Shown: positions 393 to 14,628 of the stretch, one piece after another
Layout of the letters: the number at the start of each line of letters is the position of its first letter
Position numbering within the stretch: the stretch's first letter is position 1
Assembly (NCBI RefSeq): GCF_000614545.1
Contig: NZ_BAKW01000006.1
Coordinates: forward strand, 1-64,000
DNA: 64,000 bases
Direction: 5' to 3'
Source of the DNA: Asaia platycodi JCM 25414
GTDB taxonomy: Bacteria > Pseudomonadota > Alphaproteobacteria > Acetobacterales > Acetobacteraceae
The notes under the pieces: generated by a model
The model's input: only the letters and a program-made list of their open reading frames with translations
Told to the model about the DNA's origin: nothing
Databases searched by the model: none
Made by a program: the position numbers and the translations under genes

Positions 393-1526
393 ATGATGAA
401 AATCGCCTTTCCTTATATCGCGCAGCCTCACCAGACACTGCACTCCCTGCCCATCGCCATGGAGATCGCTTCTCGACATGCCGACACAGAGGTGCATGTC
501 GCCTGTACGACAGAGGCGCATCTGGATTATGCCAAGACACTCAGTGCGCTTTACCCTCAGGCACGGGCACGCTTCGATCTTCTGAAAATGCCCGAGATGC
601 TCCGACGGCGTATCGAGCATTCCGGTCCGGGCGTTCTGGGCAAAATGGCCAGCCTTTTTTTCAACCGTGATTATTTCTCACGCTTCGAAGCGATTGTCGT
701 GCCAGAGCGTACCTCGCTCTATCTGCGTCGAATGGGCATTCGCAAGCCGAGGTTGATCTGGACCCGCCACGGTGCGGGAGATCGAGCGATCGGTTTCGCG
801 CGAGACGTCAAAGAGTTCGATTTCGTGCTGCTTTCGGGCAAGAAGATTGAAGAACGGCTTTTGTCACAAGGCGCGATCAGCCCCGGGCGCTATTATCGCG
901 GCTCCTATGCAAAATTCGATATCGTCAGAAAAATGGCGCGGGCACGCCCTGCCCTGTTCGACAACGACAAGCCGATCGTTCTCTACAACCCGCATTTTTC
1001 ATCGAAGCTGTCGTCATGGCCGCTTATGGGCGAGCAAATTCTTCAGTATTTTGCTAATCAGGACAAATACAATCTCATCTTTGCCCCCCATTATCGCTTG
1101 TTCGACAAGCACAGACAGGAAGGGGAGCAACTCGTCGCCCGCTTTGCTCATCACGATCATCTTCTGATCGATCCCGGCAGCCCGCGTAGCATCGACATGA
1201 CCTATACCATGGCGGCCGATCTCTATCTGGGCGACGTAAGTTCTCAGGTCGCAGAGTTTCTTGTCCGCCCCCGGCCTTGCGTCTTCCTCAACGCACACCA
1301 CGTTTCATGGCAATCTGACAGAAACTACCATTTCTGGAATCTCGGTCAGGTGCTCGATAACGCTGACACATTGCCATTGGCACTGAATGCTGCTGTGACA
1401 AAACATGACGATTTCCTTGAGGCGCAACGGCAATATATACTAGAGACCTTCGAATTCACCGATGATGGCCCGACTGCCCCTGGGGCCGCCGATGCCATTG
1501 TCGATTATCTTCGCAACGCAGCCTAA
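393..1526 (+). CDS. CDP-glycerol glycerophosphotransferase-like protein (377 aa)
   Basis: Intact reading frame of 377 aa with two Rossmann-like halves and no signal peptide, resembling the CDP-glycerol:polyglycerophosphate glycerophosphotransferase fold (GT-B). Seen in the C-terminal half: a phrase like YNPHFSSKLSSW, then IFAPHYRLFDKH, and a GDVSSQVAEFL stretch matching the donor-binding D(S/T)SS region of that family. No teichoic acid is expected in a Gram-negative. Its place beside acyl-AMP ligase, ACP and serine palmitoyltransferase suggests it transfers a phospho-alcohol from a CDP-activated donor to a sphingolipid; that is inference. A second ATG lies one codon downstream of the chosen start. 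Confidence 0.7.
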   Translation: MMKIAFPYIAQPHQTLHSLPIAMEIASRHADTEVHVACTTEAHLDYAKTLSALYPQARARFDLLKMPEMLRRRIEHSGPGVLGKMASLFFNRDYFSRFEAIVVPERTSLYLRRMGIRKPRLIWTRHGAGDRAIGFARDVKEFDFVLLSGKKIEERLLSQGAISPGRYYRGSYAKFDIVRKMARARPALFDNDKPIVLYNPHFSSKLSSWPLMGEQILQYFANQDKYNLIFAPHYRLFDKHRQEGEQLVARFAHHDHLLIDPGSPRSIDMTYTMAADLYLGDVSSQVAEFLVRPRPCVFLNAHHVSWQSDRNYHFWNLGQVLDNADTLPLALNAAVTKHDDFLEAQRQYILETFEFTDDGPTAPGAADAIVDYLRNAA

Positions 1527-1605
1527 CCCATTACGCGTGGACCAGACCGGGATCTTCCCGCCCCCGGATCCATGACAGATTGAAAAGCAGAGCAGACTCA
1601 TCCCT

Positions 1606-3338
1606 ATGACGCCTAACCAAACGCCCGTTCCTACTGCATCGAACCAGAAGCGCCGTCATGGTGACTTTCCGACGTTCAGCGCTGCTCTGGACTACGCGGC
1701 CCAGGGAACGGCGGGGTTCAACATCTATAATGGGCGTGGCCAGCTGCTCGAAGCGCTCTCCTATCGGCTTCTGCGTGAGCAGGCCCTCGAGACGGCGCGT
1801 CGGTTGCTCGGGACAGGCCTCTGTGTTGGCGATCGTGTCGCCATTGTTGCGGAAAGTGACGGCGATTTCGCCCGCATTTTCTTCGGATGTCAGTATGCAG
1901 GGCTCGTCCCCGCGCCACTGCCGCTTCCCATCGCCTTTGGTGGCCGCGAAGCCTATATTTCCACGCTGCGAGGCATGGTCTCGTCCTCTGCGCCCGCGCC
2001 GTCGTCGTTCCCGAACTGATCGGATCCTGGACAGCCGATATCGTCGAGGGGCTGAATCTGGCCTTTGGCGGCTCCCCTGCTGAATTGCTGGCGCTTGCCC
2101 CGTCCGAACAGACGCTGCCGACGATTGGCGCCGAAGACCTGTCCTATCTGCAGTTCTCATCAGGCAGCACCCGCTTCCCGATGGGCGTTGCCGTAACGCA
2201 ATCTGCGGGCATGGCCAATGCACGCGCCATCGCACGCAACGGGCTGAAGGTCAGGGAAACCGGCGACCGCTGCGTCTCGTGGCTGCCGCTCTACCACGAC
2301 ATGGGTCTTGTCGGGTTCTTCCTGACCCCCATGACCTGTCAGTTGACGGTGGATCTGCTACCAACACGTGAATTTGCCCGCCGCCCGCATGTCTGGCTCG
2401 ATCTGATCAGTCGCAATCGCGGTACGATCGCCTATAGTCCTTCATTCGGCTACGAGCTTTGCGCCCGTCGCCCGGTTTCGGGTGACCTCGACCTTTCCTG
2501 CTGGCGGATCGCTGGCATCGGTGGCGATATGATCCGCCACCACATTCTTGAAACCTTCTCGGAACGCTTCGCCGCGTACGGTTTCGATGGCCGCGCTTTC
2601 GTCGCCAGCTATGGAATGGCAGAAGCCACGCTCGCGATCAGCTTCGCTCCACTCGATACCGGCATCGTGACCGACACAATCGACCTCCGCAAGCTCGAGA
2701 CAGAGGGCGTCGCCCATCCGTCCAATGATCCGTCTCATGCCCTGCGTACTTTCGTTCTGTGTGGCGTCGCCCTGCCTGAGCACGACGCGCAGGTGCGCAA
2801 TGCAGACGGCGCATTGATGCCGGAACGCCATGTAGGCATGGTCTACGTGCATGGACCGAGCCTTATGCGTGGCTATTTCGGTCGCGAGGCCGAAACCGCA
2901 GAAGTGCTGGACGACAAGGGTTGGCTGAACACCGGCGATCTCGGCTACATGCTGGACGGTCAGGTGGTCATCACAGGTCGCGCCAAGGATCTGATCATCA
3001 TCAATGGTCGCAACATCTGGCCGCAGGATCTCGAATGGTCTGCGGAACATGAAATCGCGACGCTACGCTCGCGCGATGTGGCCGTGTTTGCAGTTGAAGA
3101 AGCCGAAGGTGAACGCGTCGTCGCACTGGTGCAGTGCCGCGCCACCACTGACGAAGATCGCACCAGATTGCGTGAGGAGACCACGGGTCTGTTCCGCCGC
3201 CAGCATGGCATAGAGGTCGACGTCATACTCGTGCCGCCCCATACCCTGCCTCAGACCTCTTCGGGCAAACTGACCCGCGCCCGCGCCAAGGCGATGCTTC
3301 TGGCAGGTCAGTTCGAAACCAGCCGTACCGCAGCCTGA
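1606..3338 (+). CDS. fatty acyl-AMP ligase of the sphingolipid locus (frameshifted near 1990-2001)
   Basis: Adenylate-forming enzyme of the FAAL family, about 577 aa once one lost base near 1990-2001 is restored. Seen: FSSGSTRFPMGV (variant AMP-binding loop), WLPLYHDMGLVG, ASYGMAEATL, LNTGDLGY and GRAKDLIIINGRN, the standard A3-A8 order of acyl-adenylate enzymes. It should activate a fatty acid as acyl-AMP and load it on the ACP encoded just downstream, feeding serine palmitoyltransferase or ceramide synthesis. The same trio (acyl-ACP synthetase, ACP, Spt) occurs in Caulobacter-type sphingolipid clusters. The N-terminal 130 codons are in one frame and the rest in the -1 frame. Confidence 0.85.
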
Positions 3339-3358
3339 TGTCCAAGGAAGGAAAGGCG

Positions 3359-3487
3359 ATGACGATGCGTTTCCTCCCCTTTCTTTCCGACGACGCCCTC
3401 ACGTGGCGTGATCGAGAGATCGCCCTCTGGCCACGGGGCCCGCGCTGTCGCATAAGACCCATCATCACAGGGTGCCTCGCGCCCTAA
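3359..3487 (+). CDS. possible 42-aa small ORF between acyl-AMP ligase and ACP
   Basis: ATG preceded by an unusually good Shine-Dalgarno stretch (AAGGAAAGG) and running 42 codons to TAA, ending 23 bases before the ACP gene. It fills a gap otherwise too long for this compact operon. The product has a mixed hydrophobic and Arg/Trp-rich composition and no family I recognise. It could equally be a leader region; small size and lack of homology keep confidence low. Confidence 0.2.
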   Translation: MTMRFLPFLSDDALTWRDREIALWPRGPRCRIRPIITGCLAP

Positions 3488-3510
3488 CGCCTCTACTCGG
3501 AGACCTTGAA

Positions 3511-3768
3511 ATGGCCGATACGGTCGCCTCCATCGCCTCGATGATCATCGACAAATTGCTCGCCAATCCCAAAGTCCCCCGCGACATCACCGGTGAAAGC
3601 AAGATTGTGGAAGATCTCGCCTTCGACTCTCTCGCCGTCATGAACTTCGTGATGGAGATTGAAGACGAACTCGATGTCTCCGTGCCGCTCGACAAGCTGG
3701 CTGATATTCGCACGATCGACGATCTTGCCGTCTGCCTCGCTTCCCTCAAGGCCGGCAGCGCCTCGTGA
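3511..3768 (+). CDS. dedicated acyl carrier protein of the sphingolipid locus
   Basis: 85-aa acidic four-helix acyl carrier protein. The phosphopantetheine site is the serine in FDSLAVMNF, about residue 36. A GGAG ribosome site lies 8 bases before the ATG. It is clearly different from the housekeeping AcpP at 18105-18344 (DSL followed by AVM, not DTV). Its stop codon overlaps the GTG of the serine palmitoyltransferase gene (GTGA), so the two are translationally coupled. Likely role: carries the acyl chain made by the upstream acyl-AMP ligase to serine palmitoyltransferase, as AcpR does in Caulobacter. Confidence 0.9.
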   Translation: MADTVASIASMIIDKLLANPKVPRDITGESKIVEDLAFDSLAVMNFVMEIEDELDVSVPLDKLADIRTIDDLAVCLASLKAGSAS

Positions 3769-4957
3769 CCGATATTTTCGCCAAGTATGCGGGGCTCAAG
3801 GCTGCAGCGGCCGGACTGACGGCACATTCCCCGCGCAACCCGTTCGGGGTCGTGATCGATCACCCTGTTTCGGCCACGGTCGGTCTGATCGAGGGGCGTG
3901 AGACCCTTCTTTTCGGGACGAACAACTATCTTGGTCTCAGCCAGTCTACGGCCGCTGCCGAGGCGGCCATCGAGACTGTGCGTCGGGAAGGCGTCGGCAC
4001 GACGGGGTCACGCATCGCCAATGGCACCTACGCGCTTCACCGCAAGCTTGAAACGCGTCTGGCAGAAGTCTTTCGTCGCCGTCACTGCATGATCTTCTCA
4101 ACGGGCTACCAGGCCAATCTCGGGGCGATTTCGGCGCTAGCGGCAAGGACGACGTGCTGCTTCTCGATGCTGACAGCCATGCCAGCATTTATGACGCGAG
4201 CCGCCTTGGCTATGCACAGGTCATCCGCTTCCGCCATAACGATCCGGCCGATCTTGATCGCCGCCTGTCGCGGTTGAAAGATCACCAGGGCGCCAAGCTG
4301 GTCGTGGTCGAAGGCATCTATTCCATGACCGGCAATGTCGCGCCGATGCGAGAGTTTGCCGAGGTCAAGAAAAAGCATGGGGCTTATCTCCTTGCCGACG
4401 AGGCTCATTCTTTCGGCGTTCTGGGCGAAAACGGTCGCGGCGTCGCCGAGCGCGATGGATGTGAAGACGATGTCGATTTCGTCGTTGGCACGTTTTCGAA
4501 GAGCCTCGGCACAGTTGGCGGCTATTGCGTATCCAATCTCGATGGGCTCGAGCTGATCCGTCTTTGCTCTCGCCCGTATATGTTCACTGCGTCACTGCCC
4601 CCGGAAATCATCGCCGCGACTTTGGCCGCGCTTGACGAGATGCTCGCGCGCCCCGAACTGCGTACGCAGCTCTACGCCAATGCCAAGCAGCTCAATCATG
4701 GTTTGCACGCACTGGGTCTGAAGACCAGCGCTCATGTCAGCCCGGTTGTGGCCGTGACCCTCGAAACCGTCGAGCAGGCGCTCGCTTTCTGGAATCGTCT
4801 GCTGGAACTCGGCGTTTATGTCAATCTGTCGCTCCCCCCGGCAACCCCTGACGAACATCCGCTTCTGCGCTGCTCGGTCATGGCCGTGCACACGCCCGAG
4901 GAAATCGCTCGTGCACTGAGCATCTTCGCTCAGGCGAAGAACGACGTTCTGGGCTAG
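3765..4957 (+). CDS. spt: serine palmitoyltransferase (frameshifted near 4142)
   Basis: PLP-dependent alpha-oxoamine synthase, about 397 aa after restoring one G near 4142, where ALAGKDDVLLLD is split between two frames. Seen: NNYLGLS near the N terminus, GYQANLG, LADEAHSFGVLG (PLP-contacting Asp and His) and the Schiff-base lysine in GTFSKSLGTVGG. It condenses serine with an acyl thioester to 3-ketosphinganine, the first step of sphingolipid synthesis. KBL, BioF and HemA share the fold, but the partner ACP and acyl-AMP ligase and the lack of heme or biotin neighbours favour Spt. Start is GTG overlapping the ACP stop. A strong hairpin with T-run follows the gene. Confidence 0.88.
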
Positions 4958-4976
4958 ATCCCGAACTGAACACCAT

Positions 4977-5014
4977 AAAAAAGGCGAGAGGTTCCCTAAA
5001 CCCTCGCCTTTTTT
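4977..5014. terminator. bidirectional terminator between spt and the leftward gene
   Basis: A-run plus GGCGAG at 4977-4988 pairs with CTCGCC plus T-run at 5003-5014; inner GGTT/AACC bases extend the stem. It lies between convergent genes and has T-runs in both directions. Confidence 0.9.
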
Positions 5015-5026
5015 CATGCTCGTCTT

Positions 5027-5972
5027 TCAGCCCCGCATGCCGCTGAGGAAGATTTTTCGTGCTCGCCAGAGGAGCCTCGGCAGGCAGATCAGTGGATGAC
5101 GCGCCTCAAAAGAAGAAAGCCTCAGCACGAAGCCACTATGACGCTCGATTTTCCATGCGAGATAAGCAGCCCCGTTTCGGAACGTAAAAGCCGCCTTGAT
5201 AAGCCGGGCGACGTTACGCCAACGCCCACGGTGCGCCATACGATCCCACCGTCGCAAAGCACGCAGGCGCTGAGCTTTGGATAGGCCTGGGGTGAGGCAG
5301 CCGTCTTTCTCGTCAAATACGACACCCGCACTTTGCCATGCCGGCCGGGTAAGCGCAGCGTAGCGCGCCGACTGCCCCTGCATGATCACGGAGCCCCGCC
5401 CGGATTTTTCAACACGCAATTCGGCTCGATAGCTTCGTCGGAAAAGCGCCTCCCACCACTGCTCGGGACGATGCGCCCCCTCTTCGAGCCGGGCTGCCCA
5501 GCCTGCAGCAGTGGTCACGCAGGTGCGGATAATCGAAAGAAGAGAGTCGGCGGCATCGGGGCTTCTCACCCAGACGAGGCGCGCTGGCTGGCAGAACCTC
5601 GCCCAGAGTGTGGTGTCAATCGAGCGGGGCGACGCCCCTGCACGGAATTGCTGCAAGGTCAGGAGAGCCACTTTCGCCCGCAGCAACTGTCCGTCAATCT
5701 CATGCTCTGCATAAAAAAACGTTCGGAGGCAGAAGGCGGTTGCCCAGAAGGGCCAGCGGCGACGCCGGCCAGTCTGAAAAGCGTTCAAGCACAATATAGA
5801 AATCAAACAGTCCTTCCGGATCGAACTGTCGCAGACCTGAGCCGTAGAAAAGCACGCCGAGCGGCCGGGTGATGCCCAGAATTTGCGTGACCAAGGCGTG
5901 AAGCCGGGGATCGACCGGTGTCGTCAACTCGCTGATCAGGATGTGATCGAGCGCGAAATCGGCTTCAGTCAT
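5027..5972 (-). CDS. nucleotidyltransferase-like protein of the lipid locus (frameshifted near 5710-5717)
   Basis: Two frames join at a run of seven T on the coding strand (5710-5717) into one protein of about 315 aa. The N-terminal part contains LFYGSGLRQFDPEGLFDFYIVL, reminiscent of the GS-x(n)-D-x-D pattern of Pol-beta-type nucleotidyltransferases; the C-terminal part is Arg/Trp-rich and unlike anything I recognise. The break needs either one extra T or two missing bases. The start ATG (5972) overlaps the end of the lipid kinase gene by 8 bases, so the two are co-translated. A role in head-group attachment is inferred only from neighbours. Confidence 0.55.
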
Positions 5973-6924
5973 GCACGAACCCGAATTCAGGCCCCTCGGA
6001 GAGGACGATGCGATTATCGGCACCTGGCGAGAAACATTCGCCATCAAGCACGAAATCGCCCTGACAGGTCAGGATAAGTTCCTTGGCCTTGCCGCTCGTA
6101 TAATCGGGACTTTCTCTCAACCAGGCTGGCGCCCGACCGCGAAGCAGCGCCCAGGTCGCCTGCATCAGCTTTCCGGGGTGATCGGCGACGCGTAGATAAT
6201 ACAGCCCGCCCGCTTTCACCTTGCCGGCATTCCAGAATGGCCAGATGCCAAGATTGAGCTTTTGCAATGCTGTGGAGAGAAAAAGGAAGCTCTGACCATC
6301 GACCAGCGTGGCGCCCTCGCTTTCAAGCGTGAGCCGATCCCCTGCCAGCCAGGTCTCGCGCTGACGACGCCACAACAGGCTGCCGAAAGCTCCGATCAGA
6401 GTCGCCGCGACAGCGAGATTATGCGGCGCATAGCGCAACACATGAGGCGAGTGTGCGATAGCAATAGCGCGCGCATAGCCCGAACTGCCCTGAAACATGC
6501 CCAGGCGAGATTCATACTCACCCTCAGGCCAGGAAATCTTGAGCGGGCGCCGCTTCGTGCGTGGCAGAACCCCGCTGTTACGATAGAGAAGCTGAAGCGT
6601 CTCGATGCCACGCTTGGAAAAACCGATATCCTGCGCAATCAGATTGGTATTGCCCGAAGGGAAAATCGCGATGTCGGGCAAGCTGTCAGCTGGATAGATA
6701 CGCGCAATAGCGGTCATGACATCGCTGACCGTGCCGTCTCCACCATTGATGGCGATGAGCGGCACATTGCGCCGCGCCAGTTCAGTCACCATTTCCTGCA
6801 TCTCGTCATGAGACGAGGGCACCAGAAACCCGTCGCCCAGAAGGTCACTCGCTTGGCGTGCGAATTTTCTGCCATCCCGTCGGTTCTTGCGACTGCGTGG
6901 GTTATGGATCAGGGCTAGGCGCAC
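5965..6924 (-). CDS. diacylglycerol-kinase-family lipid kinase (candidate ceramide kinase)
   Basis: 319-aa DAGK_cat protein. Seen: HNPRSRKNRR at the N terminus and the nucleotide loop AINGGDGTVSDV near residue 80, followed by FPSGNTN; the C-terminal half is the usual YegS/LCB5-like beta-sandwich. Such enzymes phosphorylate lipid hydroxyls with ATP. In Caulobacter a DAGK-like protein (CpgB) in the sphingolipid cluster is reported as a ceramide kinase (from memory). The location here between spt and the LptFG-like operon makes ceramide phosphorylation the best guess; diacylglycerol kinase is the alternative. Divergent from the metallophosphoesterase gene, with 167 bases between starts. Confidence 0.8.
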   Translation of the reverse strand: MRLALIHNPRSRKNRRDGRKFARQASDLLGDGFLVPSSHDEMQEMVTELARRNVPLIAINGGDGTVSDVMTAIARIYPADSLPDIAIFPSGNTNLIAQDIGFSKRGIETLQLLYRNSGVLPRTKRRPLKISWPEGEYESRLGMFQGSSGYARAIAIAHSPHVLRYAPHNLAVAATLIGAFGSLLWRRQRETWLAGDRLTLESEGATLVDGQSFLFLSTALQKLNLGIWPFWNAGKVKAGGLYYLRVADHPGKLMQATWALLRGRAPAWLRESPDYTSGKAKELILTCQGDFVLDGECFSPGADNRIVLSEGPEFGFVHD

Positions 6925-7091
6925 GGCAGTATCATTTATGTTACGGTAATCCCTTCAGCCCGGCGGATCATCTGGGGTCCGCCTTGCGCGGCGCCATAGC
7001 ATGACTTAGGCAGCGGGACCAGAAACCGATTGGTCATTTTTAACTTTTGCCGTTACCGGCCTGTGACCTGTCGTAAGGAAGAGAAAGGTCG

Positions 7092-7994
7092 ATGACTCCA
7101 ACAGAAACCCCCTCCTTGGTTCTGGCGCATCTCTCCGACGTGCATCTTCCTCCCCCTGCTCCCCTGCCTTCATGGCCTCATTTCACGAACAAGCGCGCCC
7201 TCAGCGTGGCCTCGTGGAAGCGCCATCGCGTGCATCATCATCTGCCCGCCCTCTCGGATGCTGTGCGCGACGATATGCAGGCCGCCCGACCTGATCTGAT
7301 CCTCAACACGGGCGATCTGACGAATTTCGGCCTGCGCGAGGAGTTTTCAAACGCGGCCTCGTGGCTCGGAACCATGAAGGCTCCCTGCCTCGTCGTCCCA
7401 GGCAATCACGACGCCATGGTGCGCGAACCGTGGCAGGAAACCACCGCCCAATGGTCTGACTGGATGGAAAACAGTGCCGAAGGGGCATTTCCCTATCTGC
7501 GCGAAGAAGGCGATCTCGCCATTATCGGCGTCAACAGTGCCGTACCGACCCCACCCTTCATGGCCTGCGGACATGTCGGTGCAGCGCAGCGGGTGCGCTT
7601 GGCCACGCTTCTGGACGCGACACGCGACCGATGCCGCGTCATCATGATCCATCATCCCCCACGCACTGGCCTCGTGCCCTGGCGCAAATCGCTGCTCGAT
7701 CTCAAGGCTGTCGCCGACATCATTGCGCAACACGGTGCTGCCATGGTGCTGCATGGCCATTCACATGACGCTACGCTTTCCACGATACCGGGCACGTCCA
7801 TTCCTCTCATCGGCGTGCCCTCGGCCTCTTTGCAATCTGCGAAACCCTGGCGCCATAGTGGCTGGAACCGGATCGCGATTGCGCGCCATGATGCCGGTTG
7901 GGAGATCGACCTGACGACACGTCAATTCACGCAAGAAACAGGATGGCGATGCAGTCGACATCGTAACTGGCTCATACGCGACGGGCAGGGCTGA
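7092..7994 (+). CDS. metallophosphoesterase, first gene of the rightward lipid operon
   Basis: 300-aa calcineurin-like phosphoesterase. Metal-binding motifs in order: HLSDVHL (DxH), NTGDLTNFG (GDxx), VPGNHDAM (GNHD), MIHHPP and VLHGHSHD (GHxH). All ligands are present, so it should be active. A strong AAGGAAGAGAAAGG ribosome site precedes the ATG. The stop overlaps the next start (TGATG). Family members include LpxH/LpxI-like UDP-sugar hydrolases and lipid phosphatases. Here it may remove a phosphate from, or cleave, an activated head-group intermediate; substrate unknown. Confidence 0.85.
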   Translation: MTPTETPSLVLAHLSDVHLPPPAPLPSWPHFTNKRALSVASWKRHRVHHHLPALSDAVRDDMQAARPDLILNTGDLTNFGLREEFSNAASWLGTMKAPCLVVPGNHDAMVREPWQETTAQWSDWMENSAEGAFPYLREEGDLAIIGVNSAVPTPPFMACGHVGAAQRVRLATLLDATRDRCRVIMIHHPPRTGLVPWRKSLLDLKAVADIIAQHGAAMVLHGHSHDATLSTIPGTSIPLIGVPSASLQSAKPWRHSGWNRIAIARHDAGWEIDLTTRQFTQETGWRCSRHRNWLIRDGQG

Positions 7995-9184
7995 TGCGTC
8001 TCCCCCATTTTCCGACTCTGGACCGCTATCTTCTGGCCCAGCTACTCCCGCCCTTCATCGTCTCTCTGGCCGCCGTGCTGGCAGCCCTTCTGCTGGAGCG
8101 CCTGCTCGTCCTGTTCGACGATCTAGCCGCAGAGGGTAGCTCTCTTGCCACGTTCGTCTCACTGCTGACGGACCTGCTCCCGCATTATCTCGGCCTGGCG
8201 CTGCCTGCTGCCCTTTGTGTCAGTGTTTTTCTGATCATCCGGCGGATGAGCGACAATAACGAGATCGATGCTCTCATGGCGAGCGGCGTCTCGCTGCTGC
8301 GTATCGCCCGACCCTATATGTGGTCGGGCGTTGTCCTGGGGCTCGGCAGTATCCTGCTCTATGGCTATATCCAGCCCGTCGCACGCTATGATTTCCGGTC
8401 CGGCTTCTATTATGCTGCCCATTCTGGCTGGGCGCCCCATCTTCAGGCAGGCATGTTCGCCACGACGTCTGGAGATTCGATGCTCACTGCCGATCGCGTT
8501 TCACGCAACGGCACTGTGCTGCATGAGGTCTTTATCCGACAGCGTGAACCCGACGGCGCGGTTCGGATCATCACCGCGCATCGCGGGCTGATCACGGCCG
8601 TGCCCTCTCTCAAGCAGACACGCCTCGATCTATGGGATGGCGTGATCGTCTACGATCCGCGCGACGAAAGCAACAAGGCCAACCAGACCCGTTTCGAGCA
8701 TAGCATGCGCACTTTCGATCAGAGCCATGATACGGCGGTCTTCCGCTCACGCGGGATCGACGAGCGCGAACTGACCCTGGTCGAGCTGGCGACCCGGCTC
8801 GAAGCCTCTCATCAATCAGATGCCTCAACCGGTGAGGGGGTCATCACACGATCGAGCCTGCGTGCCGAACTTGATTTCCGCCTGGCGCGCGCGCTCGCCA
8901 TTCCCTTTATCCCGCCCCTGGCGGTTGCGCTGGCCATAGGCGCCAAACGACGTCGCCCGATCATGGGGCTCATCGCACTGGCTATCGTTCTCGTCGGCTT
9001 CGATCATACGCTGCAATTCGGCCACGGTCTGATCGCGACAGGCCGGATGAAGGGTTTCTACGCGATCTGGCTGCCTGAAATCCTGTTCTGTACGATCTGT
9101 ATGGCGTCCATTTTCAGGCGCTCGCGCGGGTCGTGGCGCCGACGCCAGGCAATCCCTCTCAAGAAAGCAGCGCGCGCATCATGA
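7994..9184 (+). CDS. lptF: LptF/YjgP-family permease
   Basis: 396-aa LptF/LptG-family membrane protein: transmembrane helices near residues 12-40, 55-80 and 95-120, a long periplasmic beta-jellyroll-like region about 125-270, then three C-terminal helices. This family forms the transmembrane half of the LPS exporter and binds the LptB ATPase. It overlaps the metallophosphoesterase upstream and the LptG-like gene downstream (ATGA). It may be the housekeeping LptF, or a paralogue dedicated to sphingolipid export given its neighbours. The sequence alone does not decide. Confidence 0.85.
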   Translation: MRLPHFPTLDRYLLAQLLPPFIVSLAAVLAALLLERLLVLFDDLAAEGSSLATFVSLLTDLLPHYLGLALPAALCVSVFLIIRRMSDNNEIDALMASGVSLLRIARPYMWSGVVLGLGSILLYGYIQPVARYDFRSGFYYAAHSGWAPHLQAGMFATTSGDSMLTADRVSRNGTVLHEVFIRQREPDGAVRIITAHRGLITAVPSLKQTRLDLWDGVIVYDPRDESNKANQTRFEHSMRTFDQSHDTAVFRSRGIDERELTLVELATRLEASHQSDASTGEGVITRSSLRAELDFRLARALAIPFIPPLAVALAIGAKRRRPIMGLIALAIVLVGFDHTLQFGHGLIATGRMKGFYAIWLPEILFCTICMASIFRRSRGSWRRRQAIPLKKAARAS

Positions 9185-10273
9185 GCGAACCCCAGGCATC
9201 CCGCTCGGTGCTGCGCACCCATCTGACGCGATCCTTTCTAAGCCGCACACTGATTTGCGGGGCTATCCTGGTTTCCATGATGGAAATTCTGGGCCTGCTC
9301 GAAATGACCACCCCTATTCTGGAGCGTCATCTCGGAGCAATGGGCTTGGTGCGCTATGCCCTGCTCAGACTACCGAGCCTCGCTTTTCAGACACTCCCTC
9401 TCAGCACGCTGATCGGCGCGCTCTTTCTGCTCATGCAGATGACGCTCAACAGCGAGACGGCGAGCCTGCGCGCCGCCGGGCTGTCGACACGGCGCCTGCT
9501 TGTCCTGCTCCTGCCCTCGATCGGGATTATCAGCCTGGTCGGAATCGCAATGCAGGAGATCGTCGCTCCCCAGGCCGAGCTGGCTCTTGCCAAATGGTGG
9601 AACAAGACCGATCCCCATGCCGCAGGCAGCGGCCATGGGTTCTGGTTTCATGCAGCGGGTGACGTCGTGCATATCGACAGCTTCAGCGAGGGCGGGCGGC
9701 GTATCTCGAAAGTGGCAGTCTATCATCGCGTCAAGGGCGGCGATCTGATCGCCGCCGATACGGCACCGGAACTGGTCTATGACCTGCGAACCGGCTGGCA
9801 GGCCACTCATGTGCGTAGCCTTACGCTCAGAAGCAACCGTGTCGATATCGATCAGCACAAGGATGTCACGCTTCTGCCGGCAAGCCTGACGCCCGATACG
9901 CTGATCCAGCTTTCGCAGAATTATCCGGTACTTTCCTTCTGGTCACTCTGGAACATCCTGCATCGCGGCGGGGCATCGAGCCTGCCAAGGCGACCTATCG
10001 CATGGCGCTTTTCGCGCCCTTCACCCTGCCTGTTTCACTCTGCGCGATGCTTTTCCTCGCCCTGCCGGTGATCTATATTCCTCCCCGCACGGTACGCGCA
10101 GCCTTCTGCCGATTGCGGCGCTGGCTGCCGGTTTTGGTTTCATCGTGCTGCAAGGCCTGATACAGGCACTGGGCAATGCAGGAACCCTGCCCGCGTTAAT
10201 TGCCGTCACGGCGCCTCCCGCCCTGGCATTCCTCCTCGGAGGGGCATGGATTGTGAAGATGGAAGAAAAATGA
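9181..10273 (+). CDS. lptG: LptG/YjgQ-family permease (two frameshifts, near 9973 and 10092)
   Basis: About 364 aa after restoring one G in the G-run at 9970-9973 and one G near 10092. The repaired C terminus reads through three hydrophobic helices and ends MEEK-stop at 10271-10273. N-terminal helices, the periplasmic domain with FWFHAAGDVVHIDSF, and the C-terminal helices match LptG. The start overlaps the LptF stop, and its stop overlaps the ATG of the hydroxylase gene (ATGA), tying the exporter pair to lipid-modifying enzymes in one operon. Confidence 0.82.
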
Positions 10274-11097
10274 GCACTTCTAATCCTGAACAGGCCGAAG
10301 GCTTCTGGAAGGCCTTCTGGAATGCCCGGAAGAACCAGGGCTCCCTTCGTACCGGCAGAAGTTTCGATCTCGGCAAGATGAGCCTGCCTCATCTCTGGAT
10401 GGCCTATCTCACCTACCCGACCATCCTGTTCTATTTTGCCCTGATCCTGATTTCCGTCGGGGCCTCGATTGCGCTCTCTCCCCGTCTCATGCCCACGCTG
10501 GTTACCGCGGTTCTTGTTGTGGCGATCTATCCTTTCGCCTGGTACGCTATCCACCGCTTCATTCTTCATGGCCGTTGGCTCTATCGCAATCCGATCACGG
10601 CCTCGCTCTGGAAGCGCGTGCATTTCGACCATCATCAGGATCCTCATCTGCTTGATGTGCTGTTTGGCTCGCCACTGAACACCGTTCCGACGATCGCGAT
10701 CATCGTCATGCCTATCGGGTGGGGCATCGGCGGAACCAGTACGGCTTTTGCCGCGCTGGCGACGGGTCTCGTGATGACCTGCATCTACGAGTTTTTCCAT
10801 TGCATCCAGCATCTGGCCTACAAGCCGCGCTGGGCTTGGGTGGCCAAGATCAAGCAATTGCACGTGTTGCATCATTTTCATGACGAAGACGGCAATTACG
10901 GCATCACGAATTACGCTGCCGACCGACTGTTCGGCAGCTTCTACAAGGATGCCCGCGCCCGCGCCCGCAGCGCCCATGTATTCGATCTCGGCTACGATAT
11001 AAACGAGGCGCAGCGTTATCCCTGGGTGATGAAGCGCACAGGTGCACCGCCCAAGCAACGGCCTGACGGTGCGAGAAGCGGCAGCAGCACACGGTGA
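10270..11097 (+). CDS. fatty acid/sterol hydroxylase-superfamily membrane di-iron enzyme
   Basis: 275-aa integral membrane protein with the histidine clusters of the fatty acid hydroxylase superfamily: HRFILHG, HFDHHQDPH, HCIQHL and HVLHHFHDEDGNYG. Hydrophobic segments surround residues 45-90 and 135-175. Such enzymes hydroxylate acyl chains or sphingoid bases, including fatty acid 2-hydroxylase and sphinganine C4-hydroxylase. Acetic acid bacteria are known to make dihydroceramide bearing a 2-hydroxypalmitoyl chain, so 2-hydroxylation is a plausible role. The gene sits in an unbroken chain of overlapping genes (start in the LptG stop; stop in the next GTG). Confidence 0.88.
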   Translation: MSTSNPEQAEGFWKAFWNARKNQGSLRTGRSFDLGKMSLPHLWMAYLTYPTILFYFALILISVGASIALSPRLMPTLVTAVLVVAIYPFAWYAIHRFILHGRWLYRNPITASLWKRVHFDHHQDPHLLDVLFGSPLNTVPTIAIIVMPIGWGIGGTSTAFAALATGLVMTCIYEFFHCIQHLAYKPRWAWVAKIKQLHVLHHFHDEDGNYGITNYAADRLFGSFYKDARARARSAHVFDLGYDINEAQRYPWVMKRTGAPPKQRPDGARSGSSTR

Positions 11098-11852
11098 GTC
11101 TTCCCGTTCTGGTTCTTGCCGGGTCGCGCGATGGCGCCCAGGACCCGTTGGCTCGCATCGGAGGGGTCGCCCATAAAGCGCTTCTCCCGGTTGCTGGCCG
11201 TCCCATGATCGACCGTGTGCTTGAGACGCTCTCGACCACGCCGGGTCTTGGCCCTGCCTATATCAGCATTGAAACACCCGAAGCCCTCGACGCGCTCGAC
11301 AGGGCATTTACCTGCGTGCCAACGGCCAAAGGCCCGAGCGGCAGTGTCGCCCTTGCACTCGACCGGATCGGCACGCCACTCCTGATAACAACAGCCGATC
11401 ACCCGCTTCTACAGCCTCTCTGGATCACTGAATTCCTCCGGGACGCTGAAGCGTCGGACTGTGATCTTGCCGTCGGTGTTGCCCTGCGACCCGTCATAGA
11501 GCGTGATGTGGAGGGGACAAAGCGCACCTATATTCCATTAAGCGACATGAGTTTTTCGGGCTGCAACCTGTTCCTGCTGCGCACACCTCGCGCCCGCGAT
11601 GTGATCGAGCTATGGCAAAAGCTCGAACGCGATCGCAAACACCCTCTGAAAATGGCACGTACGCTCGGCTTCGGTACCCTGCTGCGCGCCCTGTTCAGAC
11701 GCCTCGACAGCACCTCGCTCACGTCACGCATTCGCGCCCTGACCGGCGCGCGGGTCAGTCTCGTCCCCATCGCTCACGGACGTGCGGCAGTCGATGTCGA
11801 CAAGCCTCAGGATCTGACCCTGGTGGAAAAGCTGCTGGCTGAAACCCCATGA
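11094..11852 (+). CDS. MobA-like NTP transferase (candidate CDP-head-group synthase)
   Basis: 252-aa nucleotidyltransferase of the NTP_transf_3 type. The N terminus has LAGSRDGAQDPLA followed by HKALLPVAGRPMIDR, a variant of the GGxGxRxG...K...PxxGxP signature, and TTADHPLL supplies the metal-binding aspartate. GTG start within the upstream stop (GTGA); its own stop overlaps the glycosyltransferase ATG. By analogy with the phosphoglycerate cytidylyltransferase of Caulobacter ceramide-phosphoglycerate synthesis (CpgD, from memory) it may make a CDP-linked head-group donor for the transferase at 393-1526. MobA itself is unlikely given the motif divergence and context. Confidence 0.78.
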   Translation: MSLPVLVLAGSRDGAQDPLARIGGVAHKALLPVAGRPMIDRVLETLSTTPGLGPAYISIETPEALDALDRAFTCVPTAKGPSGSVALALDRIGTPLLITTADHPLLQPLWITEFLRDAEASDCDLAVGVALRPVIERDVEGTKRTYIPLSDMSFSGCNLFLLRTPRARDVIELWQKLERDRKHPLKMARTLGFGTLLRALFRRLDSTSLTSRIRALTGARVSLVPIAHGRAAVDVDKPQDLTLVEKLLAETP

Positions 11853-12922
11853 AAATCGCTTATGTGATCAACTCGGTCGAAGGCGGCGGCGCCGCCCTTC
11901 CCGTGCCCGCCATCACGCAGGTCATGCGTGAAAACGGCCATGAGGTGATCGTGCTCGCCCTGACGCGTCGTGACGGGCGCGCCATCAAGCCCATGCTCCA
12001 GGCTGGCCTGACGGTGCATGTGCGTGAAGGAAGCAGGACGGATCATTTGGCGGCTCTGCTCTGGCTCAATCGGGAAATCGGTGAGCAGAAGCCCGATCTC
12101 ATCTGGACCTCGCTCACGCGGGCCACCCTTCTCGGTCAGCTGGTCGGATTGCGTCGCCGTCTGCCGGTGGTGAGCTGGCAGCACTCGGCCCGCCTCAAAC
12201 CGGCAAATGCCAAATTGCTGCGCCTGATGCGCAGCCTTTCCCGCCTCTGGATCGCGGACTCGACCTGCGTCGAACAGGAAACCGAACGCAAGCTGGGGCT
12301 GAGCGTCGACAAGCTGACCTGCTGGCCGATCTTTCGCGCCAGTGAGAGCTTCCCAGTCGCGGTTCCCTGGTCAGAAGCCGCGCCGATCCGTATAGGCAGT
12401 CTTGGACGACTGCATCCGGTCAAGGGATATGACACGCTCTGCGAAGCCGTGCGCCTGCTGGGCAAGATCGGCAACCTGCCGGAATACGAAATCCATATCG
12501 CCGGTGAGGGTGAGGAGCGCGATCGTCTCGCGGCCCTGATCGCTCGCGACAAACTGCCGATCGTTCTCGACGGTTATAACGCCGAACCAAGACAATTTCT
12601 GTCGACGCTCCAGATATACGTGCAACCCTCCCATTGGGAGGGGCTATGCCTCGCAGCGCATGAGGCCCTGCTCTGCGGTGTGCCGGTGATCGCCTCTGAA
12701 GCAGGAGAGTTGCCGCATACGATCACCGCGGCCTGCGGACGCATCGTACCGCCCAAAGACCCTGAAGCCCTGGCGCTCGCTCTCGCAGACCTGCTGCGCC
12801 AGCCGCAACGTCTTGCCGCCATGGGCCAGATCGGTCGCCAGCGCGTTCTTTCGCGCTTCGATGCCGCGTCATTCGACCGGCGGGGCAAGGAAATTCTAGC
12901 GCGCCTCGAACGAACTCTCTGA
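11849..12922 (+). CDS. glycosyltransferase family 4 protein
   Basis: 357-aa GT-B glycosyltransferase. Seen: VEGGGAALPV in the N-terminal acceptor domain, LHPVKGYDTL at the domain junction, IAGEGEER, and the E-x7-E nucleotide-sugar site within HWEGLCLAAHEALLCG. Last gene of the overlapping operon begun at 7092. It probably adds a sugar to the lipid product or its head group in the cytosol before export; donor and acceptor cannot be read from sequence. Confidence 0.85.
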   Translation: MKIAYVINSVEGGGAALPVPAITQVMRENGHEVIVLALTRRDGRAIKPMLQAGLTVHVREGSRTDHLAALLWLNREIGEQKPDLIWTSLTRATLLGQLVGLRRRLPVVSWQHSARLKPANAKLLRLMRSLSRLWIADSTCVEQETERKLGLSVDKLTCWPIFRASESFPVAVPWSEAAPIRIGSLGRLHPVKGYDTLCEAVRLLGKIGNLPEYEIHIAGEGEERDRLAALIARDKLPIVLDGYNAEPRQFLSTLQIYVQPSHWEGLCLAAHEALLCGVPVIASEAGELPHTITAACGRIVPPKDPEALALALADLLRQPQRLAAMGQIGRQRVLSRFDAASFDRRGKEILARLERTL

Positions 12923-13835: not shown

Positions 13836-14628
13836 ATGACCGATCAACGCCTCATCGCGCAACGCCTGGAGGTTGCCCGCGCCGTCGTCGCCGACGCCGC
13901 TGCTATGGCCATGGCAATGAGGCCGCCACCGGGTGGTCCGATCGGCAGCATGAAGGGCATGCAGGACTATGTGACCGAGGCCGATATGGCGGTTGAGGCG
14001 CTTGTTTCGAAAAAGATCGAGGCGCTTTTTCCTGAAGATGGCTTCATGGGTGAAGAAGGCGGCCGCCAACGCGAGGGCGGCCTGACCTGGGTAATCGACC
14101 CGATCGACGGCACCTCGAACTATGCCCGCGCGCGAGCGGTGGTGCGTCTCGCTCGGCCTGATGGACGGAGCGGTGCCCGTTGCCGGCGTCATTAATGCCC
14201 CGGCTCTGGGCGAGATCTACACAGCCCAGCGTGGCGTTGGCGCCTGGCTCAACGGCAGAAAACTCACAGCTTCTCCCGTCACAGACCCCAACAGCGCCAT
14301 GGTGGAAATGGGCTGGAGTGCCAAGGTTTCACCAGAGACTTATGCCAGCCATGCGAAAGCGTTTCTCGAACTCGGCATCGCGCCGCGCACAGGCGCCTGT
14401 GGCGCGCTGGCCCTCGCCGACGTCGCCTCGGGCCGCTGTGACGGCTATCTCGAAATTGCGATCAATCTCTGGGATGTCGCCGCAGCTCTGGTCATGCTCG
14501 AAGAAAGCGGAGCACGCGTCTCGCCCTTCCTGCAGGATGGCGGGCTCACCGGATGCATTTCGATTCTGGCCGCAGCACCAGGCGTGGCCCAGCCAATTGC
14601 CCGGGCAGCAGGCCTACGCCTGGGCTGA
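13836..14628 (+). CDS. inositol monophosphatase-family protein (frameshifted near 14127)
   Basis: About 264 aa. Motifs of the lithium-sensitive phosphatase family: EADMAVE, FMGEEGG (metal-binding Glu), VIDPIDGTSNYAR and, near the C terminus, NLWDVAAALVMLEESG. The frame breaks just after NYAR; two missing bases (GGG read as G) restore the conserved Gly and the following RWCVSLGL. Could be inositol-1-phosphatase (SuhB) or histidinol-phosphate phosphatase (HisN-type); the N-terminal region resembles HisN proteins somewhat more. Confidence 0.8.

What the first reader, a model, noticed from the sequence alone, without database searches (positions are those of the whole stretch)
393..12922. Ceramide locus with a possible complete head-group pathway: kinase, NTP transferase, CDP-alcohol-type transferase, hydroxylase
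Seen: acyl-AMP ligase, dedicated ACP and Spt with 4-bp-type overlaps, plus a DAGK-family kinase, a MobA-like NTP transferase, a CDP-glycerol-transferase-like protein and a GT4, all within 12.5 kb. Known: Caulobacter makes ceramide phosphoglycerate using a ceramide kinase and a cytidylyltransferase (from memory). Inference: acetic acid bacteria may build a phosphorylated or glycosylated ceramide by a related but rearranged route. Ceramide synthase and keto-reductase are not in the window, so the pathway is incomplete here.
Basis: partly seen in the sequence, partly recalled or inferred. Interest (0 to 1): 0.75.

Follow-up and report, generated by a model that had tools for sequence, protein, structure and literature searches.

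The report
Pared-down ceramide head-group locus
This stretch of an acetic acid bacterium's genome holds genes to start building a ceramide fat, put a phosphate-bearing head on it and probably ship it to the cell surface; it looks like a pared-down version of a pathway studied in Caulobacter, and what it keeps and lacks helps ask how that pathway works.

Summary
In detail: AMP ligase, ACP, Spt, DAGK-type kinase, FA hydroxylase, MobA-like nucleotidyltransferase and GT4 lie in 12.5 kb. Some deep relatives carry the same genes plus CpgA, CerR, CerS and CpgD candidates, in the published Caulobacter order. In 25 of 25 named acetic-acid-bacterium loci ten core genes are kept; CpgA, CpgD, CerR, CerS are not found in the stretch. 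Of 42 Acetobacteraceae genomes with CpgC, 38 lack full-length CpgA and close CpgD; all 42 have a CerS-type gene. Best reading: a reduced ceramide-phosphoglycerate-type pathway (ceramide, ceramide-1-phosphate, probably CDP-ceramide, one head group) with its own export pair. The nucleotidyltransferase and phosphoesterase, tied in Caulobacter to CPG2, persist without CpgA/CpgD, so they likely act earlier or separately. 'Complete pathway' and '393-1526 = CDP-glycerol transferase' are not supported. Four broken frames are probably sequencing errors. New variant of a known kind.

The parts
393..1526 (+). GLY: GT-B-like protein, weak PF04464 (CDP-glycerol glycerophosphotransferase) match; accessory
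   Evidence: Pfam; model and fold search; distribution
1606..3338 (+). aasR: fatty acyl-AMP ligase / acyl-ACP synthetase for sphingolipid synthesis (frame broken in the window)
   Evidence: sister-species copy over NCBIfam cut-off for fatty acyl-AMP ligase
3511..3768 (+). acpR: dedicated acyl carrier protein (ORF list starts it at 3472; ATG at 3511)
3765..4957 (+). spt: serine palmitoyltransferase (frame broken in the window)
   Evidence: sister-species copy over NCBIfam equivalog cut-off NF047599
   Evidence: fold from the Gluconobacter member
5965..6924 (-). cpgB-like: probable ceramide kinase (DAGK_cat, GGDG motif, no CxxxCxxC); overlaps cpgC-like by 8 bp
7092..7994 (+). MPE: calcineurin-like metallophosphoesterase, positional counterpart of CC_1158
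7994..9184 (+). lptF2: second LptF, groups with LptFs of other such clusters
9133..10273 (+). lptG2: second LptG (frame broken in the window)
   Evidence: (sister copy)
10246..11097 (+). FAH: Scs7/FA2H-like fatty acid hydroxylase, probable ceramide N-acyl hydroxylase
11094..11852 (+). NTP: MobA/CofC/IspD-superfamily nucleotidyltransferase, positional counterpart of CC_1153
11849..12922 (+). GT4 glycosyltransferase; accessory, adjacent only in some genera

Best explanation
The locus is the acetic-acid-bacterium form of the proteobacterial phosphosphingolipid synthesis and export cluster. AasR loads a fatty acid on AcpR and Spt condenses it with serine. A CerS-type gene and a CerR candidate on other contigs finish dihydroceramide. 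The FA hydroxylase hydroxylates the N-acyl chain. The kinase (CpgB type) makes ceramide-1-phosphate. The CpgC-type protein, with a Tam41-like fold, probably activates it with CTP to CDP-ceramide. A single small anionic head group (most simply glycerate, giving ceramide phosphoglycerate, CPG) is then attached with help of the nucleotidyltransferase and phosphoesterase. LptF2/LptG2 export the lipid to the outer membrane. CpgA and CpgD were not found, so CPG2 as Caulobacter makes it is not expected. GLY and GT4 are optional later decorations. Shown: genes, conservation, predicted fold, gene losses. Inferred: every substrate and product, the CDP-ceramide step, the export cargo, and which enzyme does the condensation.
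For: Block kept from sister species to other genera. In the class, CpgB-type kinases split cleanly from other DAGKs (42 of 385 genomes at E <= 1e-19; the next genome's best is 5.5e-10). Forty loci from 39 of the 41 other such genomes were fetched: CPGC in 35, LptF 29, FAH 25, MPE 23, Spt 23, NTP 22, CerS 22, CpgA 18. L084 reads aasR-cerR-acpR-spt / cpgC-cpgB-cpgA / MPE-lptF-lptG / cerS-NTP-cpgD, the order published for CC_1165 to CC_1152, with a desaturase and an FAH added (PMC11324152). 25 of 25 named acetic-acid-bacterium loci keep ten core genes. CpgC-family model: pLDDT 89; its five best PDB hits are all Tam41, E 9.6e-9 to 6.2e-6. Kinase has GGDG and lacks the CxxxCxxC of human CERK (criteria PMC10331486 section 7). 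A CerS-type gene in all 42 CpgC-bearing family genomes. FAH profile hits ceramide hydroxylase Scs7 at 2.3e-12. The 16 cluster LptFs in the tree group apart from this genome's other LptF (99/98).
Against: No Caulobacter protein sequence was compared; orthology rests on domains and gene order, and the CerR, CerS, CpgA and CpgD profiles were built from cluster genes picked by position and Pfam type. Published cpgB primers gave a mixed result: the 3' primer matches 22 of 24 bases at the kinase stop of L097, but the 5' primer does not match there, and L103 of the same family matches neither. In Caulobacter CC_1153 and CC_1158 are assigned to CPG2, not CPG: a CC_1153 mutant still makes CPG (though ceramide also piles up), a CC_1158 mutant makes only slightly less CPG2. 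No dedicated condensing transferase is in the locus. In 5 of 40 class loci the kinase stands without CPGC (one, L105, cut by a contig end). The LptF/G tree holds only one other LptF/LptG pair, on long branches, and LptG support is weak (84/73). CpgC sequences mostly miss Tam41 in Pfam (1 of 45, E 0.0018); TM-scores are moderate (0.50-0.59). The own CerR candidate is weak (3.3e-34, partial).
Confidence: 0.72

Rival explanations
1. The head group is a sugar or polyol-phosphate chain rather than glycerate: GLY and GT4 act on ceramide-1-phosphate or CDP-ceramide, making a glycosylated or teichoic-acid-like phosphosphingolipid.
For: GLY and GT4 flank the block in this genus and Gluconobacter; in 150 family genomes GLY matches occur only in CpgC-bearing ones (30 of 42, none of 108); TagF is among its structural matches.
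Against: GLY is not found in 14 of 25 named loci, and GT4 in 21 of the 24 with enough flank, while all 25 keep the core. Best structural matches of GLY are UDP-GlcNAc 2-epimerases. Some of the 30 are a paralogue or fragment outside the locus, and kinship inflates the association.
Confidence: 0.15
2. Housekeeping enzymes complete the lipid: CDP-ceramide is used by the cell's own CDP-alcohol phosphatidyltransferases, giving ceramide phosphoglycerol or a serine-type head group, with MPE as phosphatase.
For: Only two CDP-alcohol phosphatidyltransferase-family matches in this genome, none of CpgA type, and no such transferase in the locus.
Against: Does not explain why the nucleotidyltransferase is kept in 25 of 25 loci. 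No biochemical support.
Confidence: 0.2
3. The kinase and nucleotidyltransferase are housekeeping genes that merely neighbour a ceramide operon; only free ceramide is made.
For: Free hydroxylated dihydroceramide is the acetic-acid-bacterium sphingolipid I recall from the literature (recalled, from no call).
Against: Neither protein reaches the NCBIfam cut-offs of the housekeeping families; both are beside Spt in all 25 named acetic-acid-bacterium loci and in many class loci.
Confidence: 0.05

Closest known systems
Caulobacter crescentus CPG/CPG2 cluster CC_1165-CC_1152 (PMC11324152 sections 8, 9 and passages; PMC12275187 abstract and discussion)
   Same: aasR, acpR, spt, CpgC-like, CpgB-like, phosphoesterase, LptF2, LptG2 and CC_1153-like nucleotidyltransferase, in compatible order
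   Different: CpgA and CpgD not found; CerS-type gene (and a CerR candidate) lie elsewhere; an Scs7-like hydroxylase is built in; GLY and GT4 flank the block
Gluconobacter oxydans GOX2058-2056 with GOX1849 and GOX2417 (PMC9386255, passages and section 13 read)
   Same: aasR-acpR-spt together, cerR and cerS genes elsewhere
   Different: the parts read there treat only the ceramide genes, not the kinase, CpgC-like, LptF2/G2 or nucleotidyltransferase genes; supplementary tables not seen
Zymomonas mobilis scattered CPG genes (PMC11324152 section 9)
   Same: lacks the CpgA counterpart, expected by those authors to make CPG but not CPG2
   Different: genes scattered over ten regions there, one block here; only moderate CC_1153 and CC_1152 counterparts there
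Tam41 mitochondrial CDP-DAG synthase
   Same: predicted fold of the CpgC-like family
   Different: about 14% identity; substrate here expected to be ceramide-1-phosphate; beside ceramide genes

Membership tests
Caulobacter-type CPG synthesis locus | ceramide backbone genes aasR, acpR, spt present | tested here: met
Caulobacter-type CPG synthesis locus | CerS and CerR present in the genome | tested here: inconclusive
   CerS-type gene on contig C28 at E 9.7e-96 (no Pfam or NCBIfam family of its own); CerR candidate on C29 weak and partial, an NAD-epimerase-type protein; family identity set by gene position, not by a Caulobacter sequence
Caulobacter-type CPG synthesis locus | CpgB and CpgC (needed for CPG) | tested here: met
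   by family, fold and position
Caulobacter-type CPG synthesis locus | product is ceramide phosphoglycerate | not testable with these tools
   needs lipid mass spectrometry
CPG2 (second phosphoglycerate) branch | CpgA present | tested here: not met
   no match in this genome at E 1e-5; of 150 family genomes 29 match, 4 full-length and 25 only over short stretches. This genome is 86% complete; the single-contig sister G006 has none either, but part of it is masked
CPG2 (second phosphoglycerate) branch | CpgD (CTP:phosphoglycerate cytidylyltransferase) present | tested here: not met
   query was the PF00483 protein beside the L084 cluster, a CpgD candidate by position; 48-52% identity matches in 5 of 150, own genome best 6.8e-8 over 55 residues
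CpgB ceramide kinases | GGDG motif, no CxxxCxxC | tested here: met
   criteria from PMC10331486 section 7
CpgB ceramide kinases | phosphorylates ceramide | not testable with these tools
   needs enzyme assay
MobA (TIGR02665) | score over the curated cut-off | tested here: not met
   23.2 against 151.85 bits
YegS/DgkB lipid kinases | score over the curated cut-off | tested here: not met
   best 33.2 against 284 bits
Tam41 CDP-DAG synthase fold | structural match of the model | tested here: met
   five best PDB hits all Tam41, for the Gluconobacter family member
CDP-glycerol glycerophosphotransferase (393-1526) | PF04464 over cut-off and TagF as best structural match | tested here: inconclusive
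   Pfam 25.1 against 22.1 bits over part of the profile; TagF at rank 40 behind UDP-GlcNAc 2-epimerases and others, in the 50 rows shown; NCBIfam none

The most novel reading that the evidence does not exclude
Acetic acid bacteria make a mono-head-group anionic sphingolipid through CDP-ceramide, with the CC_1153-type nucleotidyltransferase and CC_1158-type phosphoesterase as part of the first head-group step. The Caulobacter model, which puts those two only in CPG2 formation, would then need to be redrawn, and the Bombella-type ten-gene block, with CerS and CerR encoded elsewhere, would be the minimal module for making and exporting a bacterial phosphosphingolipid.
Probability: 0.35. Interest if true: 0.78.

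Novelty: new variant of a known kind. Interest (0 to 1): 0.58.

Why it matters
How ceramide-1-phosphate becomes ceramide phosphoglycerate is openly unsolved (CpgC acts 'through a yet unidentified mechanism', PMC12275187). The acetic acid bacteria are a natural gene-loss experiment: CpgA and CpgD are missing together while CpgB, CpgC, the nucleotidyltransferase, the phosphoesterase and LptF2/G2 stay. That narrows which enzymes can belong to the first step and gives a ten-gene block, in culturable organisms of food and insects, in which each step can be tested. It also predicts that these bacteria carry an anionic surface sphingolipid, and not only free ceramide.

Tried and rejected
PF04339 as a marker of ceramide synthase: it gave a match on C31, but the CerS profile built from cluster genes finds nothing there and finds C28 instead; the first guess, also written in an early note, was wrong. 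Apparent loss of GLY in the single-contig sister G006 is masked sequence, not loss; absence of GLY and GT4 is therefore stated only for the 25 named loci, none of which holds an N; for GT4 one of them, L176, has too little flank and is left out. Frame breaks as pathway decay: rejected, 19 of 47 compared ORFs over the window are split (the ORFs were chosen mechanically, FAH being represented by an antisense ORF and acpR left out as too short). CpgC profiles against PDB sequences found nothing useful; only the fold search did. Thermus TTHA0179, the closest solved relative of the nucleotidyltransferase, is in no paper of the library. Literature: 'ceramide' with 'phosphoglycerate' and 'Gluconobacter' gave one paper, a cocoa-fermentation metagenome, listing only seen; 'Asaia' with 'sphingolipid' gave 12, 10 listed, none on this topic by title. 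Searches showed no report of this locus in acetic acid bacteria, but searches listed only 20 of 64, 15 of 2,342 and 8 of 968 papers, the library is open-licence PMC only, and figures and supplements (such as the CpgB genus tree of PMC10331486) were not seen. Genus name: a sister genome's size made me think of Asaia from memory; no call tested it.
Full report
What is there. The window starts at the start of contig C30 of a 3.15 Mb draft genome, 86% complete. Four of the genes (aasR, spt, the 5027-5972 gene, lptG) are split between frames; in the sister genome G004 they are whole. Across the window 19 of 47 sister ORFs that could be placed are split, and the break in the 5027-5972 gene lies in a run of T, so these are most likely sequencing errors.

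Conservation. The kinase is present in 9 of 9 genomes of the genus, own included (the eight others at 76-90% identity), and in four other genera of the family at 35-73% (in all 17 of 40 genomes matched, the rest weakly). Window proteins laid on seven fetched loci show the same block. In the most distant one (L032) the hydroxylase, nucleotidyltransferase and aasR were not found in the stretch, while GLY, GT4, LptF/G, MPE, kinase, CpgC-like, Spt and ACP were; L031 ends after the hydroxylase, and part of the block is masked in L027.

The class. A profile of the kinase matches 98 of 385 genomes at E <= 0.001. For 42 of them E is 1e-19 or better, mostly over the whole profile; the next genome is at 5.5e-10. 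I take the other 56, with short matches, as other DAGK proteins. I fetched 40 loci from 39 of the 41 other genomes of the strong group (G225 and G287 left out). Profiles built from the window block, and from extra genes seen in the first loci, give CPGC in 35 of 40, LptF 29, LptG 28, FAH 25, MPE 23, Spt 23, ACP 23, AAS 23, NTP 22, CerS 22, CerR 20, CpgA 18. Several stretches end at contig ends or are masked, so these are lower bounds. In five loci (L077, L091, L095, L096, L105) no CPGC is seen, and in L092 and L093 kinase and CPGC stand alone.

Matching to Caulobacter. Pfam on cluster genes of L086, L071 and L084 names an epimerase (CerR position), CDP-alcohol phosphatidyltransferases (CpgA position), a GNAT-like protein (CerS position), a desaturase and a PF00483 nucleotidyltransferase (CpgD position). 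L084 reads aasR-cerR-acpR-spt, cpgC-cpgB-cpgA, MPE-lptF-lptG, cerS-NTP-cpgD, with a desaturase and an FAH added (its cerR, cpgA, cerS, desaturase and cpgD served to build those profiles, so they match by construction). The published order is CC_1165 aasR, 1164 cerR, 1163 acpR, 1162 spt, 1161 CpgC, 1160 CpgB, 1159 CpgA, 1158 phosphoesterase, 1156/1155 LptF2/LptG2, 1154 CerS, 1153 CofC-like, 1152 CpgD (PMC11324152: abstract, sections 8 and 9, and passages; PMC12275187: abstract and discussion). This makes the window's NTP the counterpart of CC_1153 and MPE of CC_1158. The match is positional and domain-level; no Caulobacter protein was compared. The CpgA-position protein of L084 and the CpgD candidate match, below cut-off, the two halves of an archaeal CDP-inositol synthase/transferase, which fits their pairing as donor maker and transferase.

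The missed gene. Three relatives scanned singly have no Pfam match; among 45 named relatives one hits Tam41_Mmp37 at 0.0018. The AlphaFold model of the Gluconobacter member has pLDDT 89 and its five best PDB hits are all Tam41, E 9.6e-9 to 6.2e-6, TM 0.50-0.59. The Caulobacter authors report a CDP-DAG-synthase domain in CC_1161 and suggest an activation step. A CTP:ceramide-1-phosphate cytidylyltransferase is the natural inference.

What acetic acid bacteria kept and lost. A scan of named genomes with a CpgC-type protein of L086 gave 114 relatives, the best 80 kept. By title 25 of the 80 are acetic acid bacteria (Komagataeibacter, Novacetimonas, Gluconobacter, Bombella, Saccharibacter, Parasaccharibacter and two unnamed Acetobacteraceae; Roseomonas, Belnapia and the like I counted among the other 55). 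AAS, ACP, SPT, CPGC, CPGB, MPE, LPTF, LPTG, FAH and NTP are in 25 of 25; CPGA, CPGD, CERR and CERS in 0 of 25 within the stretch; GLY in 11 of 25, GT4 in 3 of the 24 with enough flank. Of the other 55 loci, 35 have CPGA and 12 CPGD. Over 150 Acetobacteraceae genomes CpgC is in 42. Full-length CpgA is in 4 (25 more genomes have short matches) and CpgD at 48% identity or more in 5; four of each are in the CpgC set, so 38 of 42 lack both. A CerS-type gene is in all 42 (in one only as a fragment) and in 20 of the other 108. GLY is in 30, all in the CpgC set (Fisher 3e-22, not corrected for kinship, and some matches are a paralogue or fragment). Incomplete genomes and masked stretches can hide genes.

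Mechanism. Kinase to ceramide-1-phosphate is the best-based step (family, motif, context; enzyme activity shown for Caulobacter CpgB, PMC10331486, abstract, section 7 and passages seen). CDP-ceramide is inferred. For the condensation no dedicated transferase is left, since CpgA is not found and only two CDP-alcohol transferases are found in this genome, both outside the locus. Because NTP and MPE stay where CpgA and CpgD are gone, they cannot serve only the CpgA/CpgD step. The nucleotidyltransferase is nearest to an uncharacterised Thermus protein (2dpw, 5.4e-40), then IspD (1.3e-8), KdsB, and 3-phospho-D-glycerate guanylyltransferase (1.9e-5); a phospho-alcohol substrate fits but is not shown. 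Against this, a Caulobacter CC_1153 mutant still makes CPG and lacks CPG2, although it also piles up ceramide, and a CC_1158 mutant is only mildly changed. Either the role differs in acetic acid bacteria or the Caulobacter assignment is incomplete.

Export and hydroxylation. This genome has two LptF/LptG pairs. In a tree of 34 sequences the 16 cluster LptFs group apart from the other LptF (99/98); for LptG support is weaker (84/73). Only one outside pair was in the tree, and both its rows are long branches. Caulobacter's LptF2/G2 are proposed, not proven, to move phosphosphingolipids. The hydroxylase profile matches the ceramide hydroxylase Scs7 at 2.3e-12, with conserved histidines; the position hydroxylated is inferred.

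GLY and GT4. GLY has a GT-B-like model (pLDDT 81); UDP-GlcNAc 2-epimerases are its best matches and TagF appears at rank 40. It is not found in 14 of 25 named loci, so it is accessory. No transferase activity is claimed.

Judgement. The finding is real and better than first described, but a reduced form of a known system, hence 'new variant of a known kind'. Its value is that the gene losses make an open biochemical question testable.

Noticed in passing
window 1-64000: 19 of 47 sister-species ORFs placed on the window are split between frames, e.g. the gene at 13836-14622; the draft sequence is frame-error-rich, so ORF-based annotation of this genome will be fragmentary.
   Followed up: yes
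L250:8107-9255 (own genome, contig C33): A second GLY-family protein lies next to a RecF-like and a DNA polymerase III beta gene; extra copies occur in several family genomes, some in tandem.
   Followed up: partly
L193:918-1658 and L084:7275-8369: In a 1.8 Mb alphaproteobacterial genome the cluster carries a CpgD candidate next to NTP, and a fatty acid desaturase beside CpgC.
   Followed up: partly
L125, L132-L136, L158, L163-L165, L167, L168: CpgC-type genes occur with CpgB (in all of these but L163), often with NTP and CpgA, in MAGs labelled Binatia, Myxococcota, Deltaproteobacteria, Desulfurellaceae and Opitutaceae, outside the alpha-, beta- and gamma-proteobacteria treated in the gene-order section of PMC11324152.
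   Followed up: no
PDB 2dpw (Thermus TTHA0179): The nucleotidyltransferase family's closest solved relative is an uncharacterised Thermus protein. I recall that Thermus and Deinococcus lipids carry a glyceric acid on phosphate, which would fit a phosphoglycerate-activating family; not tested.
   Followed up: no
own genome contig C31:90797-91905: A FemAB_like (PF04339) protein, split in two frames; not the ceramide synthase.
   Followed up: partly
L076 and L077 (genome G116): Two CpgB-type kinases in one genome, one inside a large cluster and one without the other cluster genes in its stretch.
   Followed up: no
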